Shown here one piece after another: positions 21,744 through 35,157 of a stretch of 64,000 nucleotides of DNA. Both the position numbers and the translations under genes were made by a program. Under the pieces are notes generated by a model. The model was not told the DNA's origin. It ran no database searches and worked only from the letters and a program-made list of their open reading frames with translations. Every line of letters starts with the position of its first letter. Positions within the stretch are counted from its first letter, which is position 1. The DNA comes from Sphingomonas taxi (GTDB lineage: Bacteria; Pseudomonadota; Alphaproteobacteria; Sphingomonadales; Sphingomonadaceae): positions 434,001 to 498,000 of the forward strand of contig NZ_CP009571.1 of NCBI RefSeq assembly GCF_000764535.1. Direction: 5' to 3'.

Positions 21744-24563
21744 TCAGAAGGTGATGCGCGCGACGCCGGCGATCTGCCGGTCGCTCATGATCGCATCGCG
21801 CGGTCGGGTGGTGACGCCGTAATAGGTCGACCGCACCGTATTGGTGAGATTGGTGCCGTTGAGTGTCAGCGACAGATGCGGCGTCACGTTGGCGGTGATC
21901 GACGCGTCGAGCTGCCCGGACGATTTCTGGAAGATGGGCAGATTGCCCGTGCCGTTGGCCGAGGTCGTCACCAGGAACTTGTTGCGCCAATTGTAGGCGA
22001 CGCGGGCCGAAATCAGGCCATGTTCGTAGATACCGACCAGATTGTAGTTGTACTTTGACAGGCCCTCCAGCGGCAATTGCGTCACCGGCCCCTGGCTCGC
22101 CGGGCTCGGCGCCTCGGAGTCGACGTAGGTGAAGTTCGCCTGCATGCCGAGGCCGCTCAGCGCGCCGGGGAGGAAGTCGAAGAACTGCTGATAGGCGATC
22201 TCCGCGCCCTTCACCTTGGCCTTGCTGGCATTGTCGTAGGTCGTCACGTCGTAGAGCGCGGTGACGCCGTCGGTGAAGGTGACGCTACGCGGCACGATCA
22301 CCGTCTGGATGTAGTTGGAGATGTTCTTGTAGAAGCCGGCGACGCTCACCGACCCGGTCCGCGCGAAATACCATTCGAGCGAGGCGTCGAGGTTGCTCGA
22401 CCGCATCGGCTTGAGGAACGGATTGCCGGTCGAGGTCGTATGCTGCTGGTCGATCTGCGCAGTGCCGGGCTCGGTGATCGTCAGCGTCGGGTTGAGCTGG
22501 TTGAAGTTCGGGCGCGAGATGTTCTTCGATGCGGCGAACCGCAATTGCAGCCGCTCGGTGAGATGCGCGCGCAGGTTGAGGCTCGGCAGCACCGACGTGT
22601 AATCGTTGCTCTGGTCGTTTGCCGTGAAGGTCGGTGCGGCGGTCTGCTGCGTGCCGTCCGGCGCTGTGATCAGGTCGATCTGCTGGTAGAAGCCGGTCAC
22701 CGCCACCTTGGTGCGGACTACGCGGACGCCGACGTTGCCGTCGATCGGCACGGGCAGCGCGTCCGCCTTGAAGAAGGCGGCGAGATAGCCCGTATAGGTC
22801 TTCTGCGCCTGCGTATTGGTTCCGCTGGGCTGGAAGGTCGGCGTCGAGGTGATGCCGAGCGTCGCCCGCGTCGCATCGTAGTTCAGCACCGTCGGCAGCG
22901 AGAAAGCCTGGATGTCGCCGAACAGATTGGCGTCGCCACGAAAGAAGTCGCCGAGGTCGACATAGCGGAGATTGCCCGCCGGTCCGGTCAGCCCGGTGTA
23001 GCGATAGCCGGTATCGTTGGTGCGGTTGCGGCGATCGGCGTAGCGGACGCCGGCCTTGATCGAGCTGAGGATGCCGCCGTCGAAGCGATATTCGCCGTCG
23101 AGCCGGCCGACCTTGTCGGTGCCCTTCGAATTGTTGAGATTGTCGAGGTAGAAGCCGTTGCTGTAGGTCGCCGGGCTGGCGAGCCCCGCCGCCGAGGTGA
23201 TCTGGAACGACGGAATGTCGCCGCGGATATCCTGGGTCAGCGTCGTCGCAGTGCCGCTCAGGCCGACGATCGAATTGAGGTTGTTGGTCTTCGAGTCGAC
23301 GTACTGGCCGTCGGCGGTGATCGTCAGATTGGGTGTCGGCCGCCATTTGGCGTTGAGCGAATAATCGGTGGTCACCGAATGGCGCGCGCCGATCGAGGTG
23401 TTGTTGCCGATCGGCACGTTGACGAAGGTGCCGCTCTGGAAATCGCCGTTGGGTGCATAAGTGAAGGGCGCACCCGCCTGCGGCGTGATCGCGACGCCGC
23501 TGGTATAGGCGAAATAGCTGTAGCCGTAGGAGCGCAGCTTGTAATCGTTGCGGAAATATTCGCCGGTGAATTCGAGCGTGTCGGACGGCCGCCATTGCAG
23601 CGAAACGTCGACACCGAAGCGGCGGCGGTCGCCGGGCACTTCGCCGATGCCGGTGCCGTGCGGCAGCGTCGTCGTCTGGCCGGTGCGGCCGAGCGTCGCC
23701 AGCGTCGCGGCATCGCCGGCGTTGGTCGGATCGAGCGTGTAAAACGGCTCGGTCGAGATCGTGTCCTGGCGGAAGGCGGTCTTCTGATAGGAGGCGCTGG
23801 CGAGGATGCCGATCTCGCCGATGCCGGTCGACCAGCGATCGCTGAGCAGCAGCGACGCCGCCGGCTTGCTCCGGCGTGCGAGATCGTAATAGGTGTTGGT
23901 CACCGACGCGGACGCCTTGGCACCGTCGAAGTCGAACGGCTTGCGGGTGCGGAAGTTGATCGTGCCGCTGAGCTGATCCTCGATCAGGTCCGCCGACGGA
24001 TTCTTGTAGACGTCGATGCCGGCGAGCAGCTCGGACGGCACATCTTCAAGGCTGAGCGAGTTGCTCGATCCGCTGGCGGTGAAGATGTCGCGGCCGTTGA
24101 GCTCGGTGCGGACCTGGGTTAGGCCGCGGATCGCGACCGAACTGCCCTCGCCGAACGCCCGCTGGATCTGGACGCCGGAGATGCGCTGCAAGGCCTCGGC
24201 GATATTGCGGTCGGGGAGCTTGCCGATGTCTTCCGCGACGATCGAATCGACGATCTGCGCCGCGTTGCGCTTGATGTTCTGCGCCGACTGGAGGCTGGCG
24301 CGGACACCCGTGACAACGATGTCATCGCCGGCCGAAGGCGTGGTGGGGCTTGGGTCGACGGCCTGTCCCTGATCGCCGCTCGGGGCGGCGGTGCCGCTGT
24401 TCTGCTGCGCTTCGGCCGCTGCGACGGGGGCGGGGCCGTCCTGCGGCGGCGCCGTCTGCGCCTGTGCGGCCGAGCCGGCCAGAGCGATCGCCAGCAGCGA
24501 TACCGTCGCGTGGAAGCCCTTGTCGCGACCCAAGCGCGTGCGCACCATCGAACCCGTCATCAT
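21744..24563 (-). CDS. TonB-dependent receptor of the maltodextrin locus
   Basis: The 939-residue receptor has a signal peptide (FHATVSLLAIALAGSAAQAQ), a Pro/Ala/Gln-rich linker, the TonB-box-like DIVVTGVRASLQSAQNIKRNA, and a plug with IVAEDIGKLPDRNIAEALQRISGVQIQR, VAIRGLTQVRTELNGRD and DVYKNPSADLIEDQLSGTINFRTRKP. A barrel ends in IAGVARITF. The VRASL..S...K pattern is that of the MalA-type receptors of Caulobacter, so maltodextrin import across the outer membrane is likely. I place the start at the tandem ATG ATG at 24563, just after GGAGAGAGA; a longer frame upstream adds no signal-peptide-like sequence. It converges with the MFS transporter and probably has its own promoter. Confidence 0.87.
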   Translation of the reverse strand: MMTGSMVRTRLGRDKGFHATVSLLAIALAGSAAQAQTAPPQDGPAPVAAAEAQQNSGTAAPSGDQGQAVDPSPTTPSAGDDIVVTGVRASLQSAQNIKRNAAQIVDSIVAEDIGKLPDRNIAEALQRISGVQIQRAFGEGSSVAIRGLTQVRTELNGRDIFTASGSSNSLSLEDVPSELLAGIDVYKNPSADLIEDQLSGTINFRTRKPFDFDGAKASASVTNTYYDLARRSKPAASLLLSDRWSTGIGEIGILASASYQKTAFRQDTISTEPFYTLDPTNAGDAATLATLGRTGQTTTLPHGTGIGEVPGDRRRFGVDVSLQWRPSDTLEFTGEYFRNDYKLRSYGYSYFAYTSGVAITPQAGAPFTYAPNGDFQSGTFVNVPIGNNTSIGARHSVTTDYSLNAKWRPTPNLTITADGQYVDSKTNNLNSIVGLSGTATTLTQDIRGDIPSFQITSAAGLASPATYSNGFYLDNLNNSKGTDKVGRLDGEYRFDGGILSSIKAGVRYADRRNRTNDTGYRYTGLTGPAGNLRYVDLGDFFRGDANLFGDIQAFSLPTVLNYDATRATLGITSTPTFQPSGTNTQAQKTYTGYLAAFFKADALPVPIDGNVGVRVVRTKVAVTGFYQQIDLITAPDGTQQTAAPTFTANDQSNDYTSVLPSLNLRAHLTERLQLRFAASKNISRPNFNQLNPTLTITEPGTAQIDQQHTTSTGNPFLKPMRSSNLDASLEWYFARTGSVSVAGFYKNISNYIQTVIVPRSVTFTDGVTALYDVTTYDNASKAKVKGAEIAYQQFFDFLPGALSGLGMQANFTYVDSEAPSPASQGPVTQLPLEGLSKYNYNLVGIYEHGLISARVAYNWRNKFLVTTSANGTGNLPIFQKSSGQLDASITANVTPHLSLTLNGTNLTNTVRSTYYGVTTRPRDAIMSDRQIAGVARITF

Positions 24564-24951
24564 TCTCTCTCCAGCCGATCCGGCCGCGGCGATACCGCCG
24601 CGCCTGACTTGCAGACGTCGTGCTCGGCCCGTCGCGAACGTCTCGGGGCGCCGCCTAATCCACTGGAAAACGCATTTATACGACAAATGAGAATTTACAG
24701 GCGAATGTTCTAGCGCATTGGTAAAAATGTCGCAGAAGGGCCTGTTCGGGCTGATCCATGTGAAGCGAGCGGTGTATGCGAGCTAACGTATGGAGATCGG
24801 GTGGTCATGTCCCGCGCAGGGTGGCTAGGTTCGGCTGGTCATGCCGCTGGGGCTGCTGCTGTCCGGCCTCACCATCGGCGGCGTGGCGCGTGGATGACCG
24901 CGCTTGAGCTATGGCTAATTCAGACAAATCCATCGCACGTGAACGATGGGG
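24564..24951. other. 388-base gap with no recognised gene
   Basis: This stretch precedes the maltodextrin-type receptor on the minus strand and follows the end of tonB. An AT-rich island at about 24660-24735 (complement includes TTTGTCGTATAAATGCG) probably holds the receptor promoter, with TATAAA as a candidate -10 and no clear -35. A half-site-like AATGAGAAT is present but the full palindrome is not. The rest, up to the tonB stop, carries short frames only. Confidence 0.5.
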
Positions 24952-25734
24952 TCAGCCCCGCAGGCTGAACTGGATCGGCAGCTCGACCGAGACCGGATCG
25001 CCCGGAATATCGGGCGTCGGCGCGGGCAGGGGCGAGCCGCGCCTGATGGTCGCCAGCGCTTCGCCATCGAGCAACGGATAGCCGCTGCCGCGCACGATCC
25101 GCGCCGAACGGACGATGCCCTGACGATCGACGCCGATCGCGACCAGTGCCACGCCCTGCTGCCCGTCGCGTTCGGCGACGCGGGGATAGCGCAGCAGCGG
25201 CCGGAGATGCGCGAGGATATCGCCCTGCCAATTGGCCCGCGCCGCGCGTTCCGCCGCGGCGGTTCGCCCCGATGTGGGTTGCGCGGCGGCAGGAGCGGCG
25301 CTTGCCGGGGTGGTGGCGTCGGCGGGCTGGTCGCTGTGCCCCTGCGGGCGGGGCAGCGCGGGCGTCGCGGGTTCGGCCGGAGCGGGATGCGGGGCGGGGA
25401 GCTGGACGAGCGGCACCGGCACCGGCGGCGTCGGCGGCGGCGTCTCGGTCCGGCGCGGCATCTCCTGCGCCGGGGTGGTCGCCTGCGCGGTCGCGGATGC
25501 GTCTTGCGCGGCAGGGGGGACGTCGAACACGGCCAGCGCGGGCGCCGGCCGACTGCTCGGTGCCGTGGAGGGGGCCGCCCAGTGCCAGAGCGCGATCGCC
25601 GCCAACACGACATAGACCAGCGCCGTGCCGCCGAGCCCGAGCAAATTCTCGCCATGCCGGCGCCGCGCGGCATAGGAGGCGGTGGGCCAGCCGGTCGCCA
25701 TCGGCGCCGGCGCGAATGCTAGGTCAGAAGACAT
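24952..25734 (-). CDS. tonB: TonB energy-transducing protein, dedicated to the hemophilin-type cluster
   Basis: The 260-residue protein has the TonB plan. A short cytoplasmic N-terminus is followed by one membrane helix (LLGLGGTALVYVVLAAIALWHWA, about residues 31-53). A long Pro/Ala-rich periplasmic spacer (PPPTPPVPVPLVQLPAPHP and others) leads to a C-terminal domain (about residues 165-258) with YPRVAERDGQQGVALVAIGVDRQGIVRSARIVRGSGYPLLDGEALATIRR and a final strand VELPIQFSLRG. It would couple inner-membrane proton motive force to a receptor. ExbB and ExbD are not in the window, so it must use ones encoded elsewhere. Its start overlaps the Slam gene stop by 11 bases, showing one operon. Confidence 0.88.
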   Translation of the reverse strand: MSSDLAFAPAPMATGWPTASYAARRRHGENLLGLGGTALVYVVLAAIALWHWAAPSTAPSSRPAPALAVFDVPPAAQDASATAQATTPAQEMPRRTETPPPTPPVPVPLVQLPAPHPAPAEPATPALPRPQGHSDQPADATTPASAAPAAAQPTSGRTAAAERAARANWQGDILAHLRPLLRYPRVAERDGQQGVALVAIGVDRQGIVRSARIVRGSGYPLLDGEALATIRRGSPLPAPTPDIPGDPVSVELPIQFSLRG

Positions 25735-27241
25735 GATCCATCCTCAGGCTGACGCTGGTGCGCCGGTAGGAATAGAGCCAGTCGACGTTGCTGCCGACGC
25801 GGCTGTGCTGGACGAGCAGGCTGGGGCTGAGGCCCGCGACCTTCGCGCCGGGGAGGCGGGCGAGCATCGTGTAATTCCGCTCGACGTCGCGGCGTCTGGC
25901 GTCGAGCAGCGGGCTGAACGCGCCATAGTCGCGGCGGCGGAGCGAGGCGGTCAGCAGCAGGTCGACCGCCGCGCCGATCGTCCGGTCGAGCCCGAGCCGC
26001 GCGCCATATTGGCGATAGGCGTTGACCCGATCGCCGGCGCGCTTGTCGAGCAGATCCGGCCCGCCGAACACCGTCCAGCCGTGCGGCAGCGTGTGGAAGC
26101 CGGTCAGCCACGCATCCGCCTGCCGCCCGTCGTAATCGCGATAACCGTCGCGCCGGTAGCGATAGTCGCGCCAGTTGCCCTCGACCCGGACGAGCGTGCG
26201 CGACCCGAACCCGCGGCTATATTCGCCGTGCAGACCCCAGGCATCGTAGAGCCGCTGGCCCCCCAGCGTGCCGAGATCGAACGAGGGGGCGAGGACCAGC
26301 CCGGTAGCGGCGGTGCGGCGGTCGTAGCCCGCGTACAGCGACAGCGCGGTCTGGCTGTAGCGGCCGTGGCCGGGAAAGAGATCGCCGAAGGCGAGCGCCC
26401 GGCCGCCGATCCCGTCATGGCCGGCGAGCGGCAGGCGCAGCGTGGCATTGCCCTCGATATTGATCCCGCGCGCGGCGATCGGATCGGGCACCTTGCGGTC
26501 GAACAGGCAATCCCCCGAGGCGCCGGGGATCAGGCAGGTATAGCTCGCCGACGACTGGTTGAGGTTGGAGCTGTATTCGGGGCCGAACGACACCATGCCC
26601 TGCACGCCGCGCCTTTTGCGCAGGGCGGCGAGAAAGGTGTCGACCGTCCGCACCACGCCCGCCGCCTTGTCGCCCTGCGCGAGCAGCGCGCCGCGCACGC
26701 CGGCGAAGGCCTGCGCCGCCTCGCGATCGCGGCGGTCAAGGAACAGCACGCGCGCCAGTTCGAGCCGGCCGGGCACGAAATCGGGCTGCGCCGCGACGAG
26801 CGCGCGATAGGCGCGCTCCGCCCCCGCCATGTCGCCCGCCTCGCGCGCGAGGCCGCCTTCGGCGTAGAGGATCAGCCCGTCCTCGTGACCGGGGAGGGCG
26901 CGATAGGCGGCGAGGAAGCGACGCACGTCCGCCCAGCGTCGCCGCATGATCGAGACGTAGAGCGCCGCGCCCGTGTCGCTGGCGTTGCGGCCGACGGCAT
27001 AGGTGGTGCCGTCGATCTCGACGCTGGTCGGATCGAGCCGCTCGGTCTCGTCGCGCACCCGCGTTTCGGCCTCGGCCTTGCGCTGCTCGACGGTCTGGTC
27101 GAGGCGCAGGCGCGTGTCGCCGCTGCCGGCCTGCTGGGCGAGCGCGGGCGAGGGACAAGCGGCGGCCAACAGGGCGCCGGCGATGCCGACGCCCCGCGGG
27201 CCAAGGACGGAGGCCATGACGGCCCCCGTCCCCCGACGCAT
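25724..27241 (-). CDS. Slam-type outer-membrane translocon (surface lipoprotein assembly modifier)
   Basis: The roughly 505-residue protein has a signal peptide (GVGIAGALLAAACPSPALAQQ). A TPR-like N-terminal domain follows: RWADVRRFLAAYRALPGHEDGLILYAEGGLAREAGDMAGAERAYRALVAAQPDFVPGRLELARVLFLDRRDREAAQAF. The C-terminal beta-barrel opens with VSFGPEYSSNLNQSS, contains many alternating aromatic strands, and ends VSLRMDHVF. TPR plus this barrel is the Slam (formerly DUF560) architecture, which moves a cognate protein across the outer membrane. The gene directly downstream of a TbpB-like secreted protein is the expected arrangement. I used the ATG at 27241, four bases after the hemophilin-like stop; an ATG at 27217 is an alternative. 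Confidence 0.82.
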   Translation of the reverse strand: MRRGTGAVMASVLGPRGVGIAGALLAAACPSPALAQQAGSGDTRLRLDQTVEQRKAEAETRVRDETERLDPTSVEIDGTTYAVGRNASDTGAALYVSIMRRRWADVRRFLAAYRALPGHEDGLILYAEGGLAREAGDMAGAERAYRALVAAQPDFVPGRLELARVLFLDRRDREAAQAFAGVRGALLAQGDKAAGVVRTVDTFLAALRKRRGVQGMVSFGPEYSSNLNQSSASYTCLIPGASGDCLFDRKVPDPIAARGINIEGNATLRLPLAGHDGIGGRALAFGDLFPGHGRYSQTALSLYAGYDRRTAATGLVLAPSFDLGTLGGQRLYDAWGLHGEYSRGFGSRTLVRVEGNWRDYRYRRDGYRDYDGRQADAWLTGFHTLPHGWTVFGGPDLLDKRAGDRVNAYRQYGARLGLDRTIGAAVDLLLTASLRRRDYGAFSPLLDARRRDVERNYTMLARLPGAKVAGLSPSLLVQHSRVGSNVDWLYSYRRTSVSLRMDHVF

Positions 27242-27245
27242 CGGA

Positions 27246-28028
27246 TCAGTTCTTCGTGCCACCGAAGGCCGCGTTGTACTGACGGGCATTGTCGAACTTG
27301 ACCAGACCGGCCAACGCCGCGGCGTTCGCGCCGTAGAAGCGGCCCTCGACCGCACCGCCCGAAGCGACCGTCGTCCCCGACTGGGTCGCGCTCGCACCGG
27401 TTCCGCCGAAAGTCGAGTCGGTCTTGATCGTGGCGGTGCCGATGTTCACCCCATAGCCCGACGCGCTGTTGGCGATGCTGCCGGTCAGCGTGCCCGACGA
27501 GCCCGAGGCGAAGTTGGCGGTGAAGGTGCCGGTTAGCAAACCCTTGTTGGCATAGTCGCTGATGCCCCGGACCGCATAGGTCGCCGAGCCGCTGGTCGGC
27601 ACGGTCGTGCCGGTCGTGGTGCCGGCATAATAGACCGTATGATCGGTGCTGCCCGAGCTGGCATTGCTGCTCCACTCGCCGAACCAGACGTCATTGTTGC
27701 CCGCCTGCGCGAAGTGGAACAGGCCGAGGTTGCGATGATCGTCGGGTCCGGTGGTCGGATTGTTGATCGTCGTCACGCCGTTCAGGTCGGTCGAGCCGTT
27801 GCCCTTCAGGTCCTGGAAGGCGACATGATTGTCGATACCCGTCGCCTTGGCACCGAGCCCGGCTTTGCCTTCTGTCGGATGCGACGGGCCAAAGGCCGAA
27901 CTTACTCCAACCGTGATGTTCGTTAAGTCGCTCGTACCGCCTTTAACGTCTTGCGCATGAGCGGTGCCGGCGAGCGACATCGCAACGGCGGCGGAGGCGG
28001 CGAACAGCTTGAAGTTGGTCATTTTCAT
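27246..28028 (-). CDS. hemophilin/TbpB-barrel-like secreted Slam substrate
   Basis: The 260-residue protein has a Sec signal peptide (FKLFAASAAVAMSLAGTAHA, cleaved near residue 25) but no lipobox cysteine, so it is soluble rather than a lipoprotein. The mature part is Gly/Ser/Thr/Asn-rich, with QDLKGNGSTDLNGVTTIN, NLGLFHFAQAGNNDVWFGEW and a C-terminal eight-stranded-barrel signature. That signature, SGYGVNIGTATIKTDSTFGG... then GAVEGRFYGANAAALAGLVKF...AAFGG, is characteristic of TbpB/hemophilin beta-barrel domains. Hemophilins are exported by Slam and carry haem to a TonB receptor. AGGAG stands eight bases before the ATG at 28028. The haem ligand residues are not obvious, so the cargo could be another iron source. 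Confidence 0.75.
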   Translation of the reverse strand: MKMTNFKLFAASAAVAMSLAGTAHAQDVKGGTSDLTNITVGVSSAFGPSHPTEGKAGLGAKATGIDNHVAFQDLKGNGSTDLNGVTTINNPTTGPDDHRNLGLFHFAQAGNNDVWFGEWSSNASSGSTDHTVYYAGTTTGTTVPTSGSATYAVRGISDYANKGLLTGTFTANFASGSSGTLTGSIANSASGYGVNIGTATIKTDSTFGGTGASATQSGTTVASGGAVEGRFYGANAAALAGLVKFDNARQYNAAFGGTKN

Positions 28029-28049
28029 GATACGTCTCCTGCTTGGTAA

Positions 28050-28072
28050 CGCATCCGGCCATTCCGGATGCG
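28050..28072 (-). terminator. hairpin between the receptor and hemophilin-like genes
   Basis: CGCATCCGG (28050-28058) pairs perfectly with CCGGATGCG (28064-28072) over a five-base loop. It lies in the 114-base gap and about 20 bases upstream of the hemophilin-like gene start. Without a T-run it looks more like a processing or stabilising hairpin than a strong terminator, and it could raise expression of the secreted carrier relative to the receptor. Confidence 0.45.
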
Positions 28073-28142
28073 GGTATCCGGCAGTCGCTGCCCGGCCATG
28101 GGTTTGCATGTCAGGCGCGGCGGCGGCTGCCGAATTCGGGTG

Positions 28143-31100
28143 TCACAGCCTCCCCGTCAGGCTGAGACGCAGCGTCCGTCCCGGCGAGGGATTGAGCGTG
28201 CGGCTGAGCGGGTCGCTGTAGTAATGATCGGTCAGATTGGTGCCGTTGATCTCGGCGGTGAAGCGATCATCGACGCGGAAGCGGACATAGGCGTCCACCG
28301 TCAGGTTCCTGCCCCATGCATAGGGAACGTTGAGCGCATAGCCCTGGACCGGATCGGGGGAGTTTAGCAGCGTGTCGAGCAGCGGGTTGTTATACTGGCT
28401 GTACCAGACGAAGCGGGGGCCGAATTCCAGTCGACGATCGAGCAGCCGCGCACCCAGCGTCAGGTTGAGCGAGTCGTCCGGCGCGGCCTGCGTCAGCAAA
28501 TAACCTTGATAAAAGCCATATTTGACGCAGGCTGGAATCTTGCCGAGCCAAGTAGAACCGGAGTCCGTTACCAATGCTCTGGTTTCGTCGCAGACGCGAT
28601 TGGTGAAGACGTGGGCATAACCGATGTCGCCGAACACGCTGCCGTTATCGTATCGCGCCTGCGCCTCGATGCCCGACAGGATTTGCTTGTCGAGATTGGA
28701 GGACTGAAGGTTGGTGTTGCGATCGATCACGTCGGTCGTGACGTTGCGATACCAGGTCAGGCGAAAGTCCGCCTTCCGGCCGTCACCGAGCCGGAGCAGG
28801 GGGCGCAAGTCCTGAATATAGGCGGCCTCGAGCGAATGCATATGCTCCGGCCTCAATGGATAGTCGGCGTTGAGCGATTGTGAAAAGCCCGACGTGCTTT
28901 CGAATAGGCTGGGATACCGGAAATATTCGGCATAGCGGACATAAGCGCGTGCCGAATGGCTCAGATAGGCTGTCGCTGATGCTGTCGGCGCCCAGTCATG
29001 GCCGGAAAGCCGCGTATCGGCCATCGCAAGGTTCCGAAAGGCGAATATCTGATCGATAGCGCAAACGCTTCGACCAGAGTAATCCGGTCTATAGCGCGAA
29101 CTGTCGCTATATGCCCCGTTCAGACAGTCGATCTGCGATCGTGTGATCTTGCCTCGCGCATCTGGATAGAATGGATCGAAATAGGCATAACCAGTCCAGC
29201 CATTAAGCTTTGGTGTGTAGTTGGCAGCTGCGGTGTCGGCCAGCAGGGTGGCGTCGGCGATCGAATTTCCCCAATAGATGGCCTTGCCATATGTATCGCG
29301 TCGGTAATCGTCTTTGCTCTGGATCTTGAACGATCCCACCCTGTTCACATATCCCGCTACGCCTCTGACCAACAGCTTGTCGCCCGCCGCGATCGCTGCG
29401 CGAAGCTTGTCGTCGATTGCGTGGAATCCAGCATAGGTGACGCCGGCATCGAGCTTGAGGAAGCTGGCCGGGCGCCATTCGGCCTTCATGTCGATGCGAT
29501 ATTCGCCGCGCCGCCCCGAACGGTTGTTGCCGCAGAAGAAGCCGCAATAGCTCGCCCCGCGCGCGACCGCGGACTCGCCGGTCGGGCGCAGCACCTCGCG
29601 CTGCCAGTTGCCCTGCAGCAGCAGGTCGAAGCGCGAACCGAATTTGAACTGGTTGCTGGCGATCGCGCCGAAGCGGTCGTTGCGCTGGTGCAGGATCGCG
29701 GTGTCGCGCAGGATCGGGTCGCTATAGGATGCGGCCTGCGGATAGCCGCCGTTGCTGTTGGTGTCGCTGAGCGTGTGTGTGTCCCAGAAGCTCGCCTTGA
29801 AGTCGAGCCACCAGAGGTTCGGCTTCAGTTTATAGTCGACGTTATACGCCTGCGAATGGACGTGGCCGAGCGTCCACTGGATTGATCCGATGTCCGCACC
29901 GCCCCAGCCGACCACGCGCGACGGCAGGATGTCGCCATAGGTCGAGCGCGTGTCGCGGAACCCGGCCTTTAGGTAGGAGGCATCGTCGATGTGCCAGACC
30001 GCCTTGGCCAGCCATGACGACGTCCGCGACGAGGTGTTGGTGACCTCGTAGCCGGGCCGGTAGTTGAACGCCATGCGCTGGATGAACGTGCCTTGCTTCT
30101 TGGGATCGGCATTGACCTGCGAATAATAGCCGGCGTCATGCTCACCGGCGAAATAATTGCCGCGGGTGCGATAGGCATAGGCGCCGAGCAGATCGATCGT
30201 GCCCAGCCGGCCCGCCACGGCGATGCGCGCCGCCTTGTCGCCGAACGAGATGAGGTCATTGTCGTTGGGACCGCGAGCTTTGACCTGCACCGCCGGGTCG
30301 CGCGACGGATAATTCACGAGCCCCTCGGTTTTGCCGTTGCCGGGGAACAGGGGGAGGTCGCGATAGCTCTGCCCGAGGCTGAGCCGGGGGAGCCGCGGCG
30401 CGGTGGAATTGTCGCCGCCTTCCAGCTTGGCCTCGATGCCGAACGTCTGCCCCTTGCGCAGGATATCGGTGGCGTCGAGCGTGTGGACGACGACCGCGCC
30501 GCCGCTCGATCCGTCGACGCCGCGCTCCGACACCGGCCCCTTCGCGACCTGGATGCCCGCGATCAGATTGGGATCGATATAGGCGCGGTTGCTCGCGCCG
30601 TTATAGCCGCGCCAGACGGTCAGCGCCTGTTCGGTGCCGTCGATGATCACCGGCACGCGGCCGGGGCCGGAAATGCCGCGGATGCTCGGGTCGATGCCGC
30701 CGCCGTTGCGCGCGTCGCCGCTATAGACGCCGAGCATGCCCTTGAGCACGTCCGCCGGGGTCACGCCCTTGTACCGCTCGACCTCGTCCTTGCCCATATA
30801 GGTGGTGGTCGTGTCGCGGTCGTAGATGTCATCATAGCCGCGCGCGTCGCGCGCGCTGCCGCCCTCGGCGGTCTGCTGGCCCTCGACGCGCAGCGCATCG
30901 GTGGTGATCGTGTCCGCCGTCGCGGGCGCGGGCAGCCGCTCGATCGTCACCCGGTCGCCGCGCAGCCGCCCGGTGAAGCCGGTTCCCGCCAGCAGCCGGG
31001 CGAGCGCCGCCTCCGCCGTCCGCCGCCCGCTGACGCCCGGCGATGCCGCCGCCCGGATTGCGTCGTCCGGCGCGTCGATCTGCACGCCCGCCTGCTGTCC

Positions 31101-31301
31101 GAACGTGATCAGCGCCTCGCCCAGCGGCCCCGCGGCGATGGCGAAATCCCGCGCCCGTGCCTGCTCTGCTTGCTGTGCCGCGGCCACGCCCGGCGCCACC
31201 ACCCCCGCGAGCGCGGTCGCGCCCAGCCATGTCGCACGCCACACCACGATCGCCGCGCACCGCCCCCGCAGTCCGCCGCTGGTCCGTTCCGTCCTTCGCA
31301 C
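28143..31301 (-). CDS. TonB-dependent receptor with N-terminal STN signalling domain (candidate haem/hemophilin receptor)
   Basis: The 1052-residue receptor starts with GTG. After a signal peptide (residues about 1-43) it has an STN domain (ARDFAIAAGPLGEALITFGQQAGVQIDAPDDAIRAAASPGVSGRRTAEAALARLLAGTGFTGRLRGDRVTI, about residues 50-120), the kind that signals to an anti-sigma factor in FecA-type systems. The plug holds GKDEVERYKGVTPADVLKGMLGVYSGDARNGGGIDPSIRGISGPGRVPVIIDGTEQALTVWRGYNGA, with RNGGGIDPSIRGI typical of haem/hemoglobin-type receptors. The barrel ends LSLTGRL. It lies between an ECF sigma gene and the hemophilin-like gene on one strand. About 28.5-29.45 kb is much less GC-rich than the rest, indicating a mosaic gene. 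Confidence 0.83.
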   Translation of the reverse strand: MRRTERTSGGLRGRCAAIVVWRATWLGATALAGVVAPGVAAAQQAEQARARDFAIAAGPLGEALITFGQQAGVQIDAPDDAIRAAASPGVSGRRTAEAALARLLAGTGFTGRLRGDRVTIERLPAPATADTITTDALRVEGQQTAEGGSARDARGYDDIYDRDTTTTYMGKDEVERYKGVTPADVLKGMLGVYSGDARNGGGIDPSIRGISGPGRVPVIIDGTEQALTVWRGYNGASNRAYIDPNLIAGIQVAKGPVSERGVDGSSGGAVVVHTLDATDILRKGQTFGIEAKLEGGDNSTAPRLPRLSLGQSYRDLPLFPGNGKTEGLVNYPSRDPAVQVKARGPNDNDLISFGDKAARIAVAGRLGTIDLLGAYAYRTRGNYFAGEHDAGYYSQVNADPKKQGTFIQRMAFNYRPGYEVTNTSSRTSSWLAKAVWHIDDASYLKAGFRDTRSTYGDILPSRVVGWGGADIGSIQWTLGHVHSQAYNVDYKLKPNLWWLDFKASFWDTHTLSDTNSNGGYPQAASYSDPILRDTAILHQRNDRFGAIASNQFKFGSRFDLLLQGNWQREVLRPTGESAVARGASYCGFFCGNNRSGRRGEYRIDMKAEWRPASFLKLDAGVTYAGFHAIDDKLRAAIAAGDKLLVRGVAGYVNRVGSFKIQSKDDYRRDTYGKAIYWGNSIADATLLADTAAANYTPKLNGWTGYAYFDPFYPDARGKITRSQIDCLNGAYSDSSRYRPDYSGRSVCAIDQIFAFRNLAMADTRLSGHDWAPTASATAYLSHSARAYVRYAEYFRYPSLFESTSGFSQSLNADYPLRPEHMHSLEAAYIQDLRPLLRLGDGRKADFRLTWYRNVTTDVIDRNTNLQSSNLDKQILSGIEAQARYDNGSVFGDIGYAHVFTNRVCDETRALVTDSGSTWLGKIPACVKYGFYQGYLLTQAAPDDSLNLTLGARLLDRRLEFGPRFVWYSQYNNPLLDTLLNSPDPVQGYALNVPYAWGRNLTVDAYVRFRVDDRFTAEINGTNLTDHYYSDPLSRTLNPSPGRTLRLSLTGRL

Positions 31302-31332
31302 TTGCTTACCCCCATTTCACGTTCCGGCCGTT

Positions 31333-31351
31333 GATGCGAACGCGTCGCATT
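31333..31351 (-). promoter_or_regulatory. Fur-like palindrome upstream of the STN receptor
   Basis: On the complement the 19 bases read AATGCGACGCGTTCGCATC, that is AATGCGA-N5-TCGCATC. From memory, Fur sites of several proteobacteria read AATGCGA-N5-TCGCATT; 13 of 14 arm bases match, though the centre lacks the usual AT pairs. It lies 32 bases upstream of the receptor GTG, where a bound repressor would block transcription. Confidence 0.5.
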
Positions 31352-31421
31352 AGCCTATATATGGAACGCAGTGGCGGCCGGGATTTTCGGAGAATAATGC
31401 GCGACGAACACCGCGCGGCGG

Positions 31422-31964
31422 TCATTTCGGCTGACGCAGCGCGCTGCGGCAGCGGGCGACGCCCTCGGCGACGAGGCCGTGTGCGGTCGTCACCGACACG
31501 CTGAGCCGTTCGGCGATCTGGGTCAGCGTCGCGCCTTCGATCCGGTGCATCTCGACCGCCCGCCGCATCCGGACCGGCATCGTCTCGAACAAAGCGGCCA
31601 GTGCGCGCAATTCGTCACGGGCGATGGCCTGGCTTTCCGGCGACGGATCGAGGCTTGGCACGTCGACGGGCGGCGTGTCGGCGTTATCGGCAAACAGCGA
31701 CGACTGGACGGAACGCCGACGCCGCCAGTCGCGGCTGAGATTGTCGACGACGGTGCGTAGATAGGGCAGGGTCTCACGCTGCGCCTGACCGGCGGCGGCG
31801 GCGTCGAAGCGCAGCCAGGCGTCCTGCAGCAGATCCTCCGCGATACTCCCGTCACCGGTGAGTCTGACGGCGCGCCCGAGCAGCTTGGCGCGCGACACCA
31901 GATAGAGCCGCAGCCGCCGCTCGGCGGCGGTCATGCCCTGCTCCATGTCGACGTAGCGGGTCAT
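31422..31964 (-). CDS. ECF sigma factor (FecI-like)
   Basis: The 180-residue protein has sigma region 2 (LYLVSRAKLLGRAVRLTGDGSIAEDLLQDAWLRF, about residues 20-54, then LPYLRTVVDNLSRDWRRRR) and sigma region 4 (ALFETMPVRMRRAVEMHRIEGATLTQIAERLSVSVTTAHGLVAEGVARCRSAL). Length and pattern fit the FecI-type iron-starvation sigma factors. The STN receptor follows 120 bases downstream on the same strand, but no FecR-type anti-sigma gene is present anywhere in this region. A Fur-like palindrome lies at 31985-32003 just upstream. Confidence 0.88.
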   Translation of the reverse strand: MTRYVDMEQGMTAAERRLRLYLVSRAKLLGRAVRLTGDGSIAEDLLQDAWLRFDAAAAGQAQRETLPYLRTVVDNLSRDWRRRRSVQSSLFADNADTPPVDVPSLDPSPESQAIARDELRALAALFETMPVRMRRAVEMHRIEGATLTQIAERLSVSVTTAHGLVAEGVARCRSALRQPK

Positions 31965-31984
31965 ACCGAAGTGGACCTAGTGTA

Positions 31985-32003
31985 TATGCTAACGACTCGC
32001 AAT
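31985..32003 (-). promoter_or_regulatory. second Fur-like palindrome, upstream of the ECF sigma gene
   Basis: The complement reads ATTGCGAGTCGTTAGCATA, an AATGCGA-N5-TCGCATT-like site with one mismatch in the left arm and two in the right. It is 20 bases upstream of the sigma-factor ATG. The similarity to the site at 31333 supports iron control of the cluster, but it is weaker. Confidence 0.38.
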
Positions 32004-32153
32004 ATCCTATCGGCTTAGGACAGGCACTCGTTGGTCGTGGTTACGGTCGGCGACATCGCGAGAGTCGGAGAAGCCTCTATTTTTCCAGCCAGCCCGTTTC
32101 CCGGTGGTCCGCTCCTAAAATGGATCGCGAGAGCGTCAAAAGGGGTAGGCTTG

Positions 32154-33184
32154 GTGACATTGGTGAATTCCGCGTTTTGCGCCGTGCGACATGGCGTATC
32201 GGCTGCCGCCCTCGTGACGGCGATCGCCGCACCGGCTTATGCGCAACAGGCGCCGACGGATGCGGCTTCCGCCGATCCCGCTGCAGCGCAGGACGCGCCC
32301 GCTCAGCAAACCGCGACCGTGGCCGCGCCGTCCGATCCCGGCCAGGGCACGGAGATCGTCGTCACCGGCACGCTGTTCCGCGATTCGAACGCGACCTCGA
32401 TCTCGCCGGTCACCGTGCTCAGCGCGGAGACGCTCCAGCGTGCGAACATCACCACTGCGCAGGACGCGATCCGTTCGGTATCGGCGGACAGCGCGGGATC
32501 GATCTCGACCGGCTTCCGCAACGGCTTCTCGGCCGGCGGCGCCGCGGTGTCGCTGCGCGGCCTCGGCGTCTCGTCGACCGTGGTGCTGATCGACGGATTG
32601 CGCTCGGCGAACTTCCCGCTCAACGACGATGGCCACAATGCCTATGTCGATCTGAATTCGATTCCGTTCAGCATCGTCGACCGGATCGAGGTGTTGAAGG
32701 ACGGCGCATCCTCCACCTATGGCGCGGATGCGATCGGCGGCGTGGTCAATCTGATCAGCAAGAAGCATTTCGAGGGAGTCGAAGGACCGGTACAGGGCGG
32801 CGCGACCGAACGCGCCGATGGGTCGCACTATCGCGTGACGCGACAACTTACCACTTAGATTGGATCAAGCAGGTCGCGGCCGACGAGATTGCGCCCGTCA
32901 ACGGCGTGATCGATCTCTCATGCGAGAATACGCTGGCGCCCGTACCGTCGGACGGCGACAAGGCCAAGCAATGCTACGTCCGTCCGTTCATCTACGTCGA
33001 CCTCAACGCCGGCGTGCAGGTGAACGACCAGTTCCGGTTCTTCTTCAACGTGCAGAACCTGACCGATGCCCGCGCGCCGCTGGCATCGGGCGCCTATGCC
33101 AGCAATCCGAACTATCTCAGCAGCTGGCATTATGCAGGCCTCGTCGGCCGGAATTTCAGTGCCGGGGCCAGTTTCAATTTCTGA
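32154..33184 (+). pseudogene. internally deleted and frameshifted TonB-dependent receptor
   Basis: The N-terminal part (32154-32858) encodes a signal peptide (VSAAALVTAIAAPAYAQQ), an EIVVTGTLFRDSN box and a complete plug with AVSLRGLGVSSTVVLIDGLRSANFPL and RIEVLKDGASSTYGADAIGGVVNLISKK, then stops a few codons after SHYRVTRQL. The last strands of a receptor (DEIAPVNGVIDLSCENTL..., DQFRFFFNVQNLTDARAPL, final GRNFSAGASFNF) follow in another frame up to 33184. Several hundred codons of barrel are missing at a junction near 32840-32870. It cannot make a functional pore. It is divergent from the sigma gene; the recent plug and tail sequences are still well conserved, so the loss seems recent. Confidence 0.8.
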
Positions 33185-33402
33185 AATCAGTTGCCGACTG
33201 TAGCGCCTCGAGGCGGCTCTGCCGTCCCGATGCGTCACCGGGATCGCTCCAACGGCCATGACGTTGGGCGAGTAATTAGCTTGTGGCCGACGTGGCGGCC
33301 CGATGCGAACACAACGATCGGGATCGACGCCGTCCGACGGAGTACGAACGAACGCGACCTTCCGTCAGCTCGACCGTTGTGCGGGGCAGAGGAGAGTCCG
33401 CC

Positions 33403-35157
33403 ATGTCCCGCCGTATCCTGATCACCGGTGCCAGCGTCGCCGGCAATACCGCGGCGTGGTGGCTCGGCCGTGCCGGCTTCGATGTCGAGGTGGTCGAACG
33501 CGCACCGGCGTTTCGCGACGGCGGCCAGAATATCGACGTGCGCGGCGTCGGCCGCGAGGTGCTGCGGCGCATGGGACTGGAACAGGCGGCGCTCGATCAT
33601 GGTACCGGCGAGGAAGGCACCGCATGGGTCAAAAGCGACGGCAGCGTCGCCGCGCAGTTCATCACCGCCGAGTTCGGGGCCGACGGCCCCACTGCCGAAA
33701 TGGAGATCCTGCGCGGCGATCTCGCCCGCTTGGTCTACGAACCCGCTGCCGCGCGTGCCACCTATCGCTTCGGCGACAGCGTGGCGGCGATCGACGAGGA
33801 TGACGCGGCGGCGGTGGTCACCTTCGCCAGCGGACGCACCGCGCGATACGATGCGGTCATCGTCGCCGAGGGCGTCGGGTCGGCGACCCGCTCACACGTC
33901 TTCGCGAACGAGAATGCGCCGCGCTGGATGGATCTGACGATCGCCTATTTCACGATCCCGCGAACCCAGGACGACGGGCAATTGTGGCGGTGGTACAATG
34001 CGACCGGCGGGCGCAGCGTGTCGCTGCGGCCCGACCGTTACGGCACCACCCGCGCGATGCTGTCGGTACAGCAGCAGCCGGGCGGCGAGCAGGATTGGAG
34101 CACGGACCGCCAGAAGGCGTGGCTGCGCGAGCGGTTCGCCGAAGCCGGCTGGCAGACCGACCGCGTGCTCGACGGCATGGCGACGACGGACGATTTCTAT
34201 TTCGACGTGCTGCGTCAGGTGCGGATGAAGCGCTGGTCGAAGGGCAGGGTGGTGCTGACCGGCGACGCCGCATGGTGCGCGACGCCGATCGCCGGGATCG
34301 GCACGACGCTGGCGATCACCGGCGCCTATGTGCTGGCGGCGGAGCTGGCGCGGCACGACGATGTCGCCGCGGCGTTCGACTCCTATGAGCAGGCGATGCG
34401 CCCGATGGTCGAGGACGCGCAGGGCGTTCCCAAGATCGCACCGCGGCTGATGAACCCGCAGAGCCGGCTCGCCATCCGCCTGCTCCATGGCGCGCTCGCG
34501 GCGGCAAGCCGGCCCATCGTCCAAAAGGCGATGGGCAAAATGTTCGGGGGCGGCCCGAAGGAGCCCGATCTGTCCCGCTACGATGACGCCATCCCGACCG
34601 ATGTGACGATCGTCGCCTCGGAACCGGCGCCATCCGGCGTCGCGGCGCCGGCGGCGGGCGGGCTGTCGCCGCTGCTCGCGATCGGCGCGGTCGGCGTCGT
34701 GCTGGGGGCGAGTGCGGTGCTCGGGCGGCGCAACGCGCCCGATCCGTCGCACGCCGCCATCCGGCGCTGGTATCGCCGGCTCGACAAGCCCGGCTTCACC
34801 CCGCCCGATGCGGCCTTCGGCGCGGTCTGGCCGGTGCTGGAGACCGGCCTGGCGGTCGGCGGCTATCGTCTGCTGCGACGACCGGCGGGGCCGGCGCGCA
34901 ATGCCGCGGTCGGGCTCTGGCTGCTCAACACCGCAATGGTCGGCGGCTGGACGCACTTGTTCTTCCGCGAGAAGAAGCTCGGCGCGAGTGCGGCGGCATC
35001 GGGTACGATGGTCGCATCGGGTGCCGCCTATGTCGCGACCGCCGCACGCGTGGACAGGCCGGCGGCGGCGGTCGGCGTGCCGTTCGTCGCGTGGCTCGGC
35101 TTCGCCACGCTGCTCGCCGAGCGGATCTGGCGTGACAATCCGGCGGAGGAAGGATGA
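33403..35157 (+). CDS. FAD-dependent monooxygenase fused to a TspO/MBR membrane domain
   Basis: The 584-residue protein starts after GGAGAG at normal spacing. Residues 1 to about 385 are a PHBH-type flavoprotein monooxygenase: ITGASVAGNTAAWWLGRAGFDVEVVERAP (FAD-binding start), DVRGVGREVLRRMGL, EILRGDLARLVYE, VIVAEGVGSATRS, and the second FAD motif GDAAWCATPIAGIGTTLAITGAYVLAAEL. A linker with a hydrophobic stretch GGLSPLLAIGAVGVVLGASAVLG follows. The last 135 or so residues are TspO-like: IRRWYRRLDKPGFTPPDAAFGAVWPVLETGLAVGGYRLL, NTAMVGGWTHLFFREKKLGAS, then two more helices. No stop or frameshift separates the parts. TspO binds porphyrins, so a membrane-bound tetrapyrrole or xenobiotic oxidation is imaginable, but no substrate can be named. 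Confidence 0.82.
   Translation: MSRRILITGASVAGNTAAWWLGRAGFDVEVVERAPAFRDGGQNIDVRGVGREVLRRMGLEQAALDHGTGEEGTAWVKSDGSVAAQFITAEFGADGPTAEMEILRGDLARLVYEPAAARATYRFGDSVAAIDEDDAAAVVTFASGRTARYDAVIVAEGVGSATRSHVFANENAPRWMDLTIAYFTIPRTQDDGQLWRWYNATGGRSVSLRPDRYGTTRAMLSVQQQPGGEQDWSTDRQKAWLRERFAEAGWQTDRVLDGMATTDDFYFDVLRQVRMKRWSKGRVVLTGDAAWCATPIAGIGTTLAITGAYVLAAELARHDDVAAAFDSYEQAMRPMVEDAQGVPKIAPRLMNPQSRLAIRLLHGALAAASRPIVQKAMGKMFGGGPKEPDLSRYDDAIPTDVTIVASEPAPSGVAAPAAGGLSPLLAIGAVGVVLGASAVLGRRNAPDPSHAAIRRWYRRLDKPGFTPPDAAFGAVWPVLETGLAVGGYRLLRRPAGPARNAAVGLWLLNTAMVGGWTHLFFREKKLGASAAASGTMVASGAAYVATAARVDRPAAAVGVPFVAWLGFATLLAERIWRDNPAEEG

What the first reader, a model, noticed from the sequence alone, without database searches (positions are those of the whole stretch)
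24952..32003. A self-contained sigma factor / STN receptor / secreted carrier / Slam / TonB cluster
One strand carries, in order, an ECF sigma factor, an STN-bearing TonB-dependent receptor, a hemophilin-like secreted protein, a Slam-type outer-membrane translocon and a TonB, with short gaps or overlaps for the last three. Known hemophilin systems (Acinetobacter HphA, Haemophilus) consist of carrier, receptor and Slam. The addition of a surface-signalling sigma factor and a dedicated TonB in the same unit is not an arrangement I know. It would let the cell sense its own loaded carrier, switch on the whole unit and power uptake. Seen: gene order and motifs. Inferred: haem as cargo and feedback.
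Basis: partly seen in the sequence, partly recalled or inferred. Interest (0 to 1): 0.85.

Follow-up and report, generated by a model that had tools for sequence, protein, structure and literature searches.

The report
Haem-scavenging operon missing its anti-sigma factor
A Sphingomonas bacterium carries a known kind of haem-scavenging gene cluster (secreted haem catcher, its exporter, receptor, energiser and gene switch), but the protein that normally restrains the switch is missing here, so the cell probably cannot sense its loaded catcher in the usual way.

Summary
The claim of a new arrangement does not hold: the Acinetobacter baumannii hemO cluster is sigma, anti-sigma, receptor, haemophore, Slam, TonB, haem oxygenase, and the Serratia has operon uses the same logic. 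Of 24 related loci that I mapped, 22 read sigma-FecR-receptor-haemophore-Slam, then TonB and (in 20 of the 22) haem oxygenase in either order. One relative (G262, Sphingomonas morindae) has at most a scrap of fecR. An ECF-type promoter and Fur-like boxes are still there. Best reading: a standard haemophore system whose surface-signalling loop has been cut, leaving open-loop control by iron starvation. Whether the sigma is then constitutively active, inert, or held by another FecR cannot be told from sequence. A modest variant of a known kind.

The parts
31985..32003 (.). Fur-like operator upstream of the sigma gene
   Evidence: Best-scoring site of the whole window, both strands, with a matrix built from 16 relatives' receptor-upstream palindromes, three of them poor; the name Fur-like is recalled, not tested
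31422..31964 (-). FecI-like ECF sigma factor, 180 aa
   Evidence: Sigma70_r2, Sigma70_r4_2; 35 of 38 columns conserved in at least 90% of 22 relatives are kept
31302..31421 (-). 120-bp gap between sigma and receptor; the place where 22 of 24 relatives carry fecR
   Evidence: no FecR remnant by eye in three frames; best tblastn match to 22 FecR proteins 19.6 bits, no better than shuffled DNA of the G262 gap
31365..31390 (-). ECF-type promoter-like site CCGAAAAT-N14-CGTT, 89 nt before the receptor start
   Evidence: 2nd best of the 64-kb window, both strands, with a matrix from 14 relatives that holds no window sequence
31333..31351 (.). Fur-like operator between promoter and receptor start
   Evidence: 3rd best site of the window
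28143..31301 (-). STN-bearing TonB-dependent haem/haemophore receptor (HphR/HasR-like), 1052 aa
   Evidence: STN, Plug, barrel; TIGR01785 163 bits, below its cut-off of 317; best solved relative by sequence HasR
27246..28028 (-). Secreted HphA/hemophilin-type haemophore, 260 aa
   Evidence: HphA_N, HphA_C; hemophilins 8gmm, 8gm3, 9us7, 7re4, 6om5, 8glo by sequence; AlphaFold model pLDDT 86 matches HphA structures, E 8.8e-20
25724..27241 (-). Slam / T11SS outer-membrane translocon, 505 aa
   Evidence: SlipAM and TPR_Slam
24952..25734 (-). TonB, 260 aa
   Evidence: TonB_C 60 bits; one of 11 TonB_C matches in the genome

Best explanation
It is an HphA/hemophilin haem-acquisition operon of the A. 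baumannii hemO type. The haemophore crosses the inner membrane (Sec-type signal, inferred) and the outer membrane through the Slam, captures haem with two histidines, and hands it to the TonB-dependent receptor, which the adjacent TonB can power. The ECF sigma drives the receptor-haemophore-Slam-TonB run from the CCGRAAA-N15-CGTY promoter in front of the receptor, and Fur-like boxes at both promoters tie the whole to iron starvation. In relatives the sigma probably also drives fecR, whose product lets the STN domain gate the sigma. In this lineage fecR has been lost, most simply by deletion between the two like promoters that flank it, so the circuit now runs open-loop: iron starvation makes sigma, and sigma makes the uptake unit without asking whether haem-loaded carrier is present. 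Shown: gene content, family membership, absence of fecR from the unit, conserved motifs and ligands. Inferred: haem as cargo, sigma-promoter pairing, Fur control, open-loop output, deletion route.
For: Families; H50 and H98 align with the HphA haem ligands H43 and H106 and are invariant and at least 90% conserved in 29 sequences; fold. FecR is between sigma and receptor in 22 of 24 related loci, and one more (Acinetobacter L018) has sigma and FecR inverted downstream. Own genome: five FecR, all five beside another ECF sigma; a search with the FecR N-terminal domain (PF16220, E up to 0.1) gave those five and one marginal match, E 0.012. A promoter matrix trained on receptor-upstream sites only places a site among the top 5 of the locus upstream of fecR in 21 of 22 loci (20 of them 8-24 nt after the sigma stop) and upstream of the receptor in 22 of 23 (leave-one-out), and ranks the window site 2nd in 64 kb. 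The window site lies 32 nt after the sigma stop and 89 nt before the receptor start (89 in S. gei), as deletion between the two copies would leave it. HasI likewise drives hasS in Serratia, and the review calls E. coli FecI's need of FecR unique (passages of PMC9249621); in P. syringae fecR-type genes are hardly expressed without their sigma (passages of PMC3597554).
Against: No expression data. E. coli FecI shows only residual activity, when highly overexpressed, without FecR (passage), and in Sinorhizobium meliloti overexpressed FecI did not raise its neighbouring receptor gene (passage of PMC6180224), so a sigma without FecR may be dead rather than free. The STN domain is still intact and not clearly relaxed, odd if it had long lost its partner. 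The window's sigma does not group with those of its receptor's nearest kin (p-AU 0.032), so it may have been swapped. The motif is of a general ECF type (S. meliloti RpoE4 sites look alike), so another ECF sigma could read it. The window site (13.5 bits) is weaker than most relatives' sites, several relatives' receptor-upstream sites (L003, L007, L010, L014, L062) score only 9-12 bits, near background, and the window's top site (11207 +) is far from this unit.
Confidence: 0.55

Rival explanations
1. Surface signalling still works in trans: one of the five other FecR proteins of the genome serves this STN domain and sigma.
For: The STN domain and sigma are both intact and five FecR proteins exist in the cell.
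Against: Each of the five FecR genes sits beside its own sigma and no clear FecR without one was found. The window sigma is only 26-36% identical to those five sigmas.
Confidence: 0.15
2. The sigma and STN are decaying leftovers: without FecR the sigma is inactive, and the uptake genes run from another promoter or are going silent.
For: Haem oxygenase is not in the unit either; E. coli FecI needs FecR (passage); S. meliloti FecI overexpression did not raise its receptor gene (passage). Loss or decay happens elsewhere: G262 has no intact fecR, and in S. maltophilia KJ the receptor of a HemI-HemR-HemAD set is truncated, though HemI still acts (passages of PMC12772443).
Against: The sigma keeps 35 of 38 strongly conserved columns, promoter and operator sites survive, and a close metagenomic receptor (P0121) differs at about 4% of STN positions against 6% in the first part of the barrel.
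Confidence: 0.25
3. The whole is a complete, novel five-component unit in which the STN domain signals to the sigma directly or through TonB without an anti-sigma factor.
For: The five genes are intact and FecR is absent from the unit.
Against: The STN domain is periplasmic and the sigma cytosolic; known surface-signalling systems use a membrane-spanning regulator (review passages). Sigma (180 aa) and receptor (1052 aa) are of ordinary length, so no fused regulator.
Confidence: 0.05

Closest known systems
Acinetobacter baumannii hemO cluster / heme cluster 2 (HphR-HphA-HsmA-TonB-HemO with ECF sigma and anti-sigma)
   Same: Same gene families in the same order: sigma, receptor, haemophore, Slam, TonB; same two haem-ligand histidines
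   Different: A. baumannii has a FecR/DUF4880 gene between sigma and receptor and HemO plus DUF454 after TonB; the window unit has no FecR or HemO
Sphingomonad hemophilin loci such as S. gei L001 (sigma-FecR-TBDR-Hph-Slam-TonB-HemO)
   Same: Among the nearest relatives: haemophore 66%, receptor 64%, Slam 51% identical; same promoter motif
   Different: FecR and HemO present; two ECF-type promoter sites instead of one
Sphingomonas morindae locus (G262, L061)
   Same: Also without an intact fecR; receptor 65% identical
   Different: HemO kept; a possible FecR C-terminal remnant, 28.9 bits, a score that the best of 60 shuffles also reached; its sigma groups with that of S. gei
Serratia marcescens has operon (hasI-hasS-hasR-hasA-hasDE-hasB)
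   Same: Works alike: sigma, STN receptor, haemophore and dedicated TonB in one unit; HasR is the closest solved receptor by sequence
   Different: Other haemophore and its own HasD/HasE secretion proteins instead of Slam; HasS anti-sigma present
Xenorhabdus hrp locus (TonB, HrpA receptor, HrpB T11SS, HrpC hemophilin homologue)
   Same: TonB, receptor, Slam and hemophilin together (passages of PMC8406197)
   Different: No word beginning with sigma occurs in that paper's main text

Membership tests
Hemophilin/HphA T11SS haem-acquisition system | Soluble haemophore with HphA_N haem domain and HphA_C / TbpB_B_D barrel | tested here: met
Hemophilin/HphA T11SS haem-acquisition system | Bis-histidine haem ligands (HphA H43, H106) | tested here: met
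   H50 and H98 align with them; H50 invariant, H98 at least 90% conserved in 29 sequences
Hemophilin/HphA T11SS haem-acquisition system | Adjacent Slam (TPR_Slam plus SlipAM barrel) | tested here: met
   four bases after the haemophore stop
Hemophilin/HphA T11SS haem-acquisition system | Haem binding, Slam-dependent secretion and receptor uptake | not testable with these tools
   Needs bench work
FecIRA/Has-type cell-surface signalling system | FecI-like ECF sigma beside an STN-bearing receptor | tested here: met
FecIRA/Has-type cell-surface signalling system | FecR-type membrane anti-/pro-sigma factor in the unit | tested here: not met
   120-bp gap without a remnant; five FecR in the genome, all beside other sigmas
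FecIRA/Has-type cell-surface signalling system | Sigma-specific promoter before the receptor gene | tested here: inconclusive
   Motif conserved in relatives and present in the window; binding by this sigma not shown
FecIRA/Has-type cell-surface signalling system | Induction by the loaded ligand | not testable with these tools
   Needs expression data

The most novel reading that the evidence does not exclude
A FecR-free surface-signalling circuit: the STN receptor still informs the sigma of its own loaded haemophore through a partner outside the known FecR route of the unit (a borrowed FecR from another system, or the unit's own TonB), after loss of fecR once or twice in sphingomonads.
Probability: 0.1. 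Interest if true: 0.65.

Novelty: new variant of a known kind. Interest (0 to 1): 0.35.

Why it matters
The claimed novelty (sigma plus TonB with a hemophilin system) is already known, which closes that lead. The natural loss of the anti-sigma factor, with promoter site, operators, sigma and STN domain still in place, is a ready-made experiment on what FecR contributes to haemophore circuits: whether sigma freed from FecR is constitutive or dead. The conserved pair of ECF-type promoter sites before fecR and before the receptor in sphingomonad loci also makes the regulatory wiring of T11SS haemophore systems testable.

Tried and rejected
Rejected: that the five-gene arrangement is new. Rejected: a FecR fused to sigma or receptor (ordinary lengths). 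Rejected as far as searched: an orphan FecR elsewhere.

Tried without a clear result: relaxation of the STN domain. Window STN is 41% identical to S. gei where the barrel is 65%, just under the 42-64% range of 52 FecR-bearing pairs of like barrel identity. With an STN profile trained on the FecR-bearing loci the window scores 85 and G262 82 against 108-125 for 21 of the 22 training loci, but these are in-sample, Luteibacter L012, which has FecR, also scores 85, and four outside receptors of unknown FecR state (P0126-P0129) score 93-100. Mean regression residuals point the other way (+7 and +6). I call this inconclusive.

Tried: whether relatives whose DNA I could not fetch (P0121, P0123 and others) lack FecR, by matching contig lengths between the receptor and FecR protein searches. 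Only 120 of 776 FecR hits are listed; of 16 receptor contigs of 10 kb or more among P0127-P0146, 4 lengths recur in the FecR list (by eye), so absence there means little.

Tried: a FecR remnant in G262. The gap gives 28.9 bits against the very C-terminus of one of 22 FecR proteins, with three others at the same end; but the best of 60 shuffled gaps also reached 28.9 (mean 20.9), so it is suggestive only. The window gap gives 19.6. Tried: an exact promoter pattern over the own genome: 12 matches, 3 with the reversed control pattern; the 11 others were not examined. The promoter matrix found nothing strong (13.2 bits or less) in the stretches around the five FecR genes and the haem oxygenase gene. 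Shared or independent loss of fecR in window and G262: the receptor tree leaves window, S. gei and G262 as an unresolved trio. The sigma test (p-AU 0.032) used a grouping taken from the receptor tree after a first sigma tree had been seen, and involves long branches.

Rows dropped: L018 from the trees and promoter scans; L012 also from the second sigma tree. The promoter matrix used 14 of the 16 relatives in which a pattern found a site; L009 (same site as L008) and L015 were left out, and 7 of 23 relatives had no pattern match.

Literature: no description of a FecR-less hemophilin system in the listings of searches (open-licence PMC papers only). Papers seen in passages only: PMC8560813, PMC8406197, PMC12282271, PMC10483418, PMC9249621, PMC12772443, PMC3597554, PMC6180224. 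None was read whole.
Full report
What is there. On the - strand the window carries an ECF sigma (31422-31964), an STN-bearing TonB-dependent receptor (28143-31301), an HphA/hemophilin-type haemophore (27246-28028), a Slam (25724-27241) and a TonB (24952-25734). Four bases lie between the haemophore stop and the Slam start, and Slam and TonB overlap by 11 nt. The haemophore scores 104 bits with HphA_N and 112 with HphA_C, 129 against a cut-off of 80 with NCBI's Slam-dependent surface lipoprotein model, and is related by sequence to the solved hemophilins 8gmm, 8gm3, 9us7, 7re4, 6om5 and 8glo. An AlphaFold model (mean pLDDT 86) matches hemophilin structures with Foldseek E-values from 8.8e-20. 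The residues that align with the haem ligands H43 and H106 of A. baumannii HphA (passages) are H50 and H98 here: invariant and at least 90% conserved in 29 sequences. The receptor's closest solved relative by sequence is HasR. A haemophore of this kind was found in 16 of 295 genomes of the genus and in 3 of 397 sampled from the family, the window's own counted in both.

The arrangement is not new. A table in PMC10483418 lists the A. baumannii hemO cluster as ECF sigma, anti-sigma, HphR, HphA, HsmA, TonB-related protein, haem oxygenase, hypothetical protein (passages), and a public A. baumannii record shows sigma-70, DUF4880 protein, receptor, transferrin-binding-like protein, DUF560, TonB, haem oxygenase and DUF454 in a row. 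HsmA, HphA, HphR and the TonB-related protein together let E. coli use haemoglobin (passage of PMC8560813). The Serratia has operon has the same logic with another haemophore and exporter (passages of PMC9249621). Association of T11SS genes with TonB, haem oxygenase and TbpB_B_D proteins is described (passages).

What is unusual is an absence. I mapped 24 distinct related loci: 18 from a genome scan and 6 from whole-genome searches. In 22 of 24 a FecR gene lies between sigma and receptor. In one (Acinetobacter sp. ANC 4204, L018) sigma and FecR lie inverted downstream of the Slam. In one (G262, whose receptor contains that of Sphingomonas morindae, P0124, letter for letter but for the start residue) no FecR is found; the 277-bp gap holds a possible remnant of the FecR C-terminus (28.9 bits, a score the best of 60 shuffles also reached). 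In the window 120 bp separate the two genes, without a recognisable remnant. Haem oxygenase is in or next to 22 of 24 related loci (20 of the 22 with FecR in place, L018 and G262), but not in the window's unit; the genome has one match elsewhere. The genome has five FecR genes, every one beside another ECF sigma, and four of the five have an STN match near them, one of these below the cut-off. A search with the FecR N-terminal domain added only one marginal match, E 0.012. Of the five STN matches found in the genome, the window's is the only one without a neighbouring FecR.

Regulatory DNA. A 26-base motif (CCGRAAA, 15 bases, CGTY) precedes the receptor gene in many relatives: a pattern search found a site of this kind in 16 of 23. 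With a matrix from 14 of these, scored leave-one-out, the receptor-upstream site is among the five best of its locus in 22 of 23 relatives (the miss is Luteibacter L012; L018 was not scored), though five of these sites (L003, L007, L010, L014, L062) score only 9-12 bits. The window's site, 89 nt before the receptor start, scores 13.5 bits and is second best in the 64-kb window, both strands; the best, at 11207 (+), is far from this unit. The matrix was trained only on receptor-upstream sites, yet it also places a site among the top five upstream of fecR in 21 of 22 loci, 20 of them 8-24 nt after the sigma stop; L004's lies inside the sigma gene and L012 has none. So in relatives the sigma probably drives fecR and the receptor from twin promoters, as HasI drives hasS in Serratia (passage). 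The motif is of a general ECF type, so the pairing with this sigma is inference. In the window one copy is left, 32 nt after the sigma stop, which is what deletion between the twins would leave. Palindromic Fur-like boxes follow: with a matrix from 16 relatives (three rows are poor), the best and third best sites of the window lie upstream of the sigma and between promoter and receptor; the second best, at 18839 (+), is elsewhere. That these are Fur sites is recalled resemblance, not a test.

History. The receptor tree joins window, S. gei (FecR present) and G262 (FecR absent) with SH-aLRT 100 but does not resolve the three. The sigma tree joins S. gei and G262 but leaves the window's sigma elsewhere on a long branch; holding the three together costs 18.8 log units, p-AU 0.032. 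The window's sigma may have been replaced or may have evolved fast. It keeps 35 of 38 strongly conserved columns. The STN domain is intact, with no clear sign of relaxation.

Mechanism and rivals. I think the unit makes and exports a haem carrier and takes haem back through the receptor with TonB power, and that its control is now open-loop: iron starvation, then sigma, then uptake genes. It could instead be gated by another FecR in trans, or the sigma could be inert without FecR, as E. coli FecI nearly is (passage; the review calls that dependence unique), leaving the operon to other promoters. In S. meliloti overexpressed FecI did not raise its neighbouring receptor gene (passage), a result against easy release. 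S. maltophilia KJ offers a parallel of a partly broken haem surface-signalling set whose sigma still works (passages). Sequence does not decide among these.

Verdict. A FecR-less variant of a known haemophore system, of moderate interest.

Noticed in passing
window 32031-33184 (+): Divergent to the sigma gene lies a 275-aa ORF with only a receptor Plug domain (77.5 bits); an ORF in another frame ends like a TonB-dependent receptor by eye but has no Pfam match. Looks like a receptor gene with its barrel largely deleted.
   Followed up: partly
window 33283-35157 (+): One ORF joins an FAD-binding domain (FAD_binding_3, 79 bits) to a TspO/MBR domain (94 bits). TspO proteins bind porphyrins (recalled), and the gene lies near a haem uptake unit.
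   Followed up: no
window 21744-24686 (-): A second TonB-dependent receptor (TIGR01782, 726 bits, no STN match) follows TonB on the same strand after 265 bp.
   Followed up: no
L061 13434-13710 (G262, S. morindae): Gap between sigma and receptor with a possible FecR C-terminal remnant (28.9 bits; best of 60 shuffles equal): a second fecR-less locus, shared or independent loss.
   Followed up: partly
L001 and L058 (G438, S. gei): Two hemophilin loci, both with FecR and HemO, in one genome.
   Followed up: no
L018 12508-13817: In Acinetobacter sp. ANC 4204 the sigma-FecR pair lies inverted between Slam and HemO, not upstream of the receptor.
   Followed up: no
window 11207 (+): Best match of the window to the ECF-type promoter matrix, 15.0 bits, far from this unit.
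   Followed up: no
L092 (NZ_CP141945.1 89443-104370): A receptor 50% identical to this one sits on a 1.8-Mb plasmid of Novosphingobium sp. RL4.
   Followed up: no
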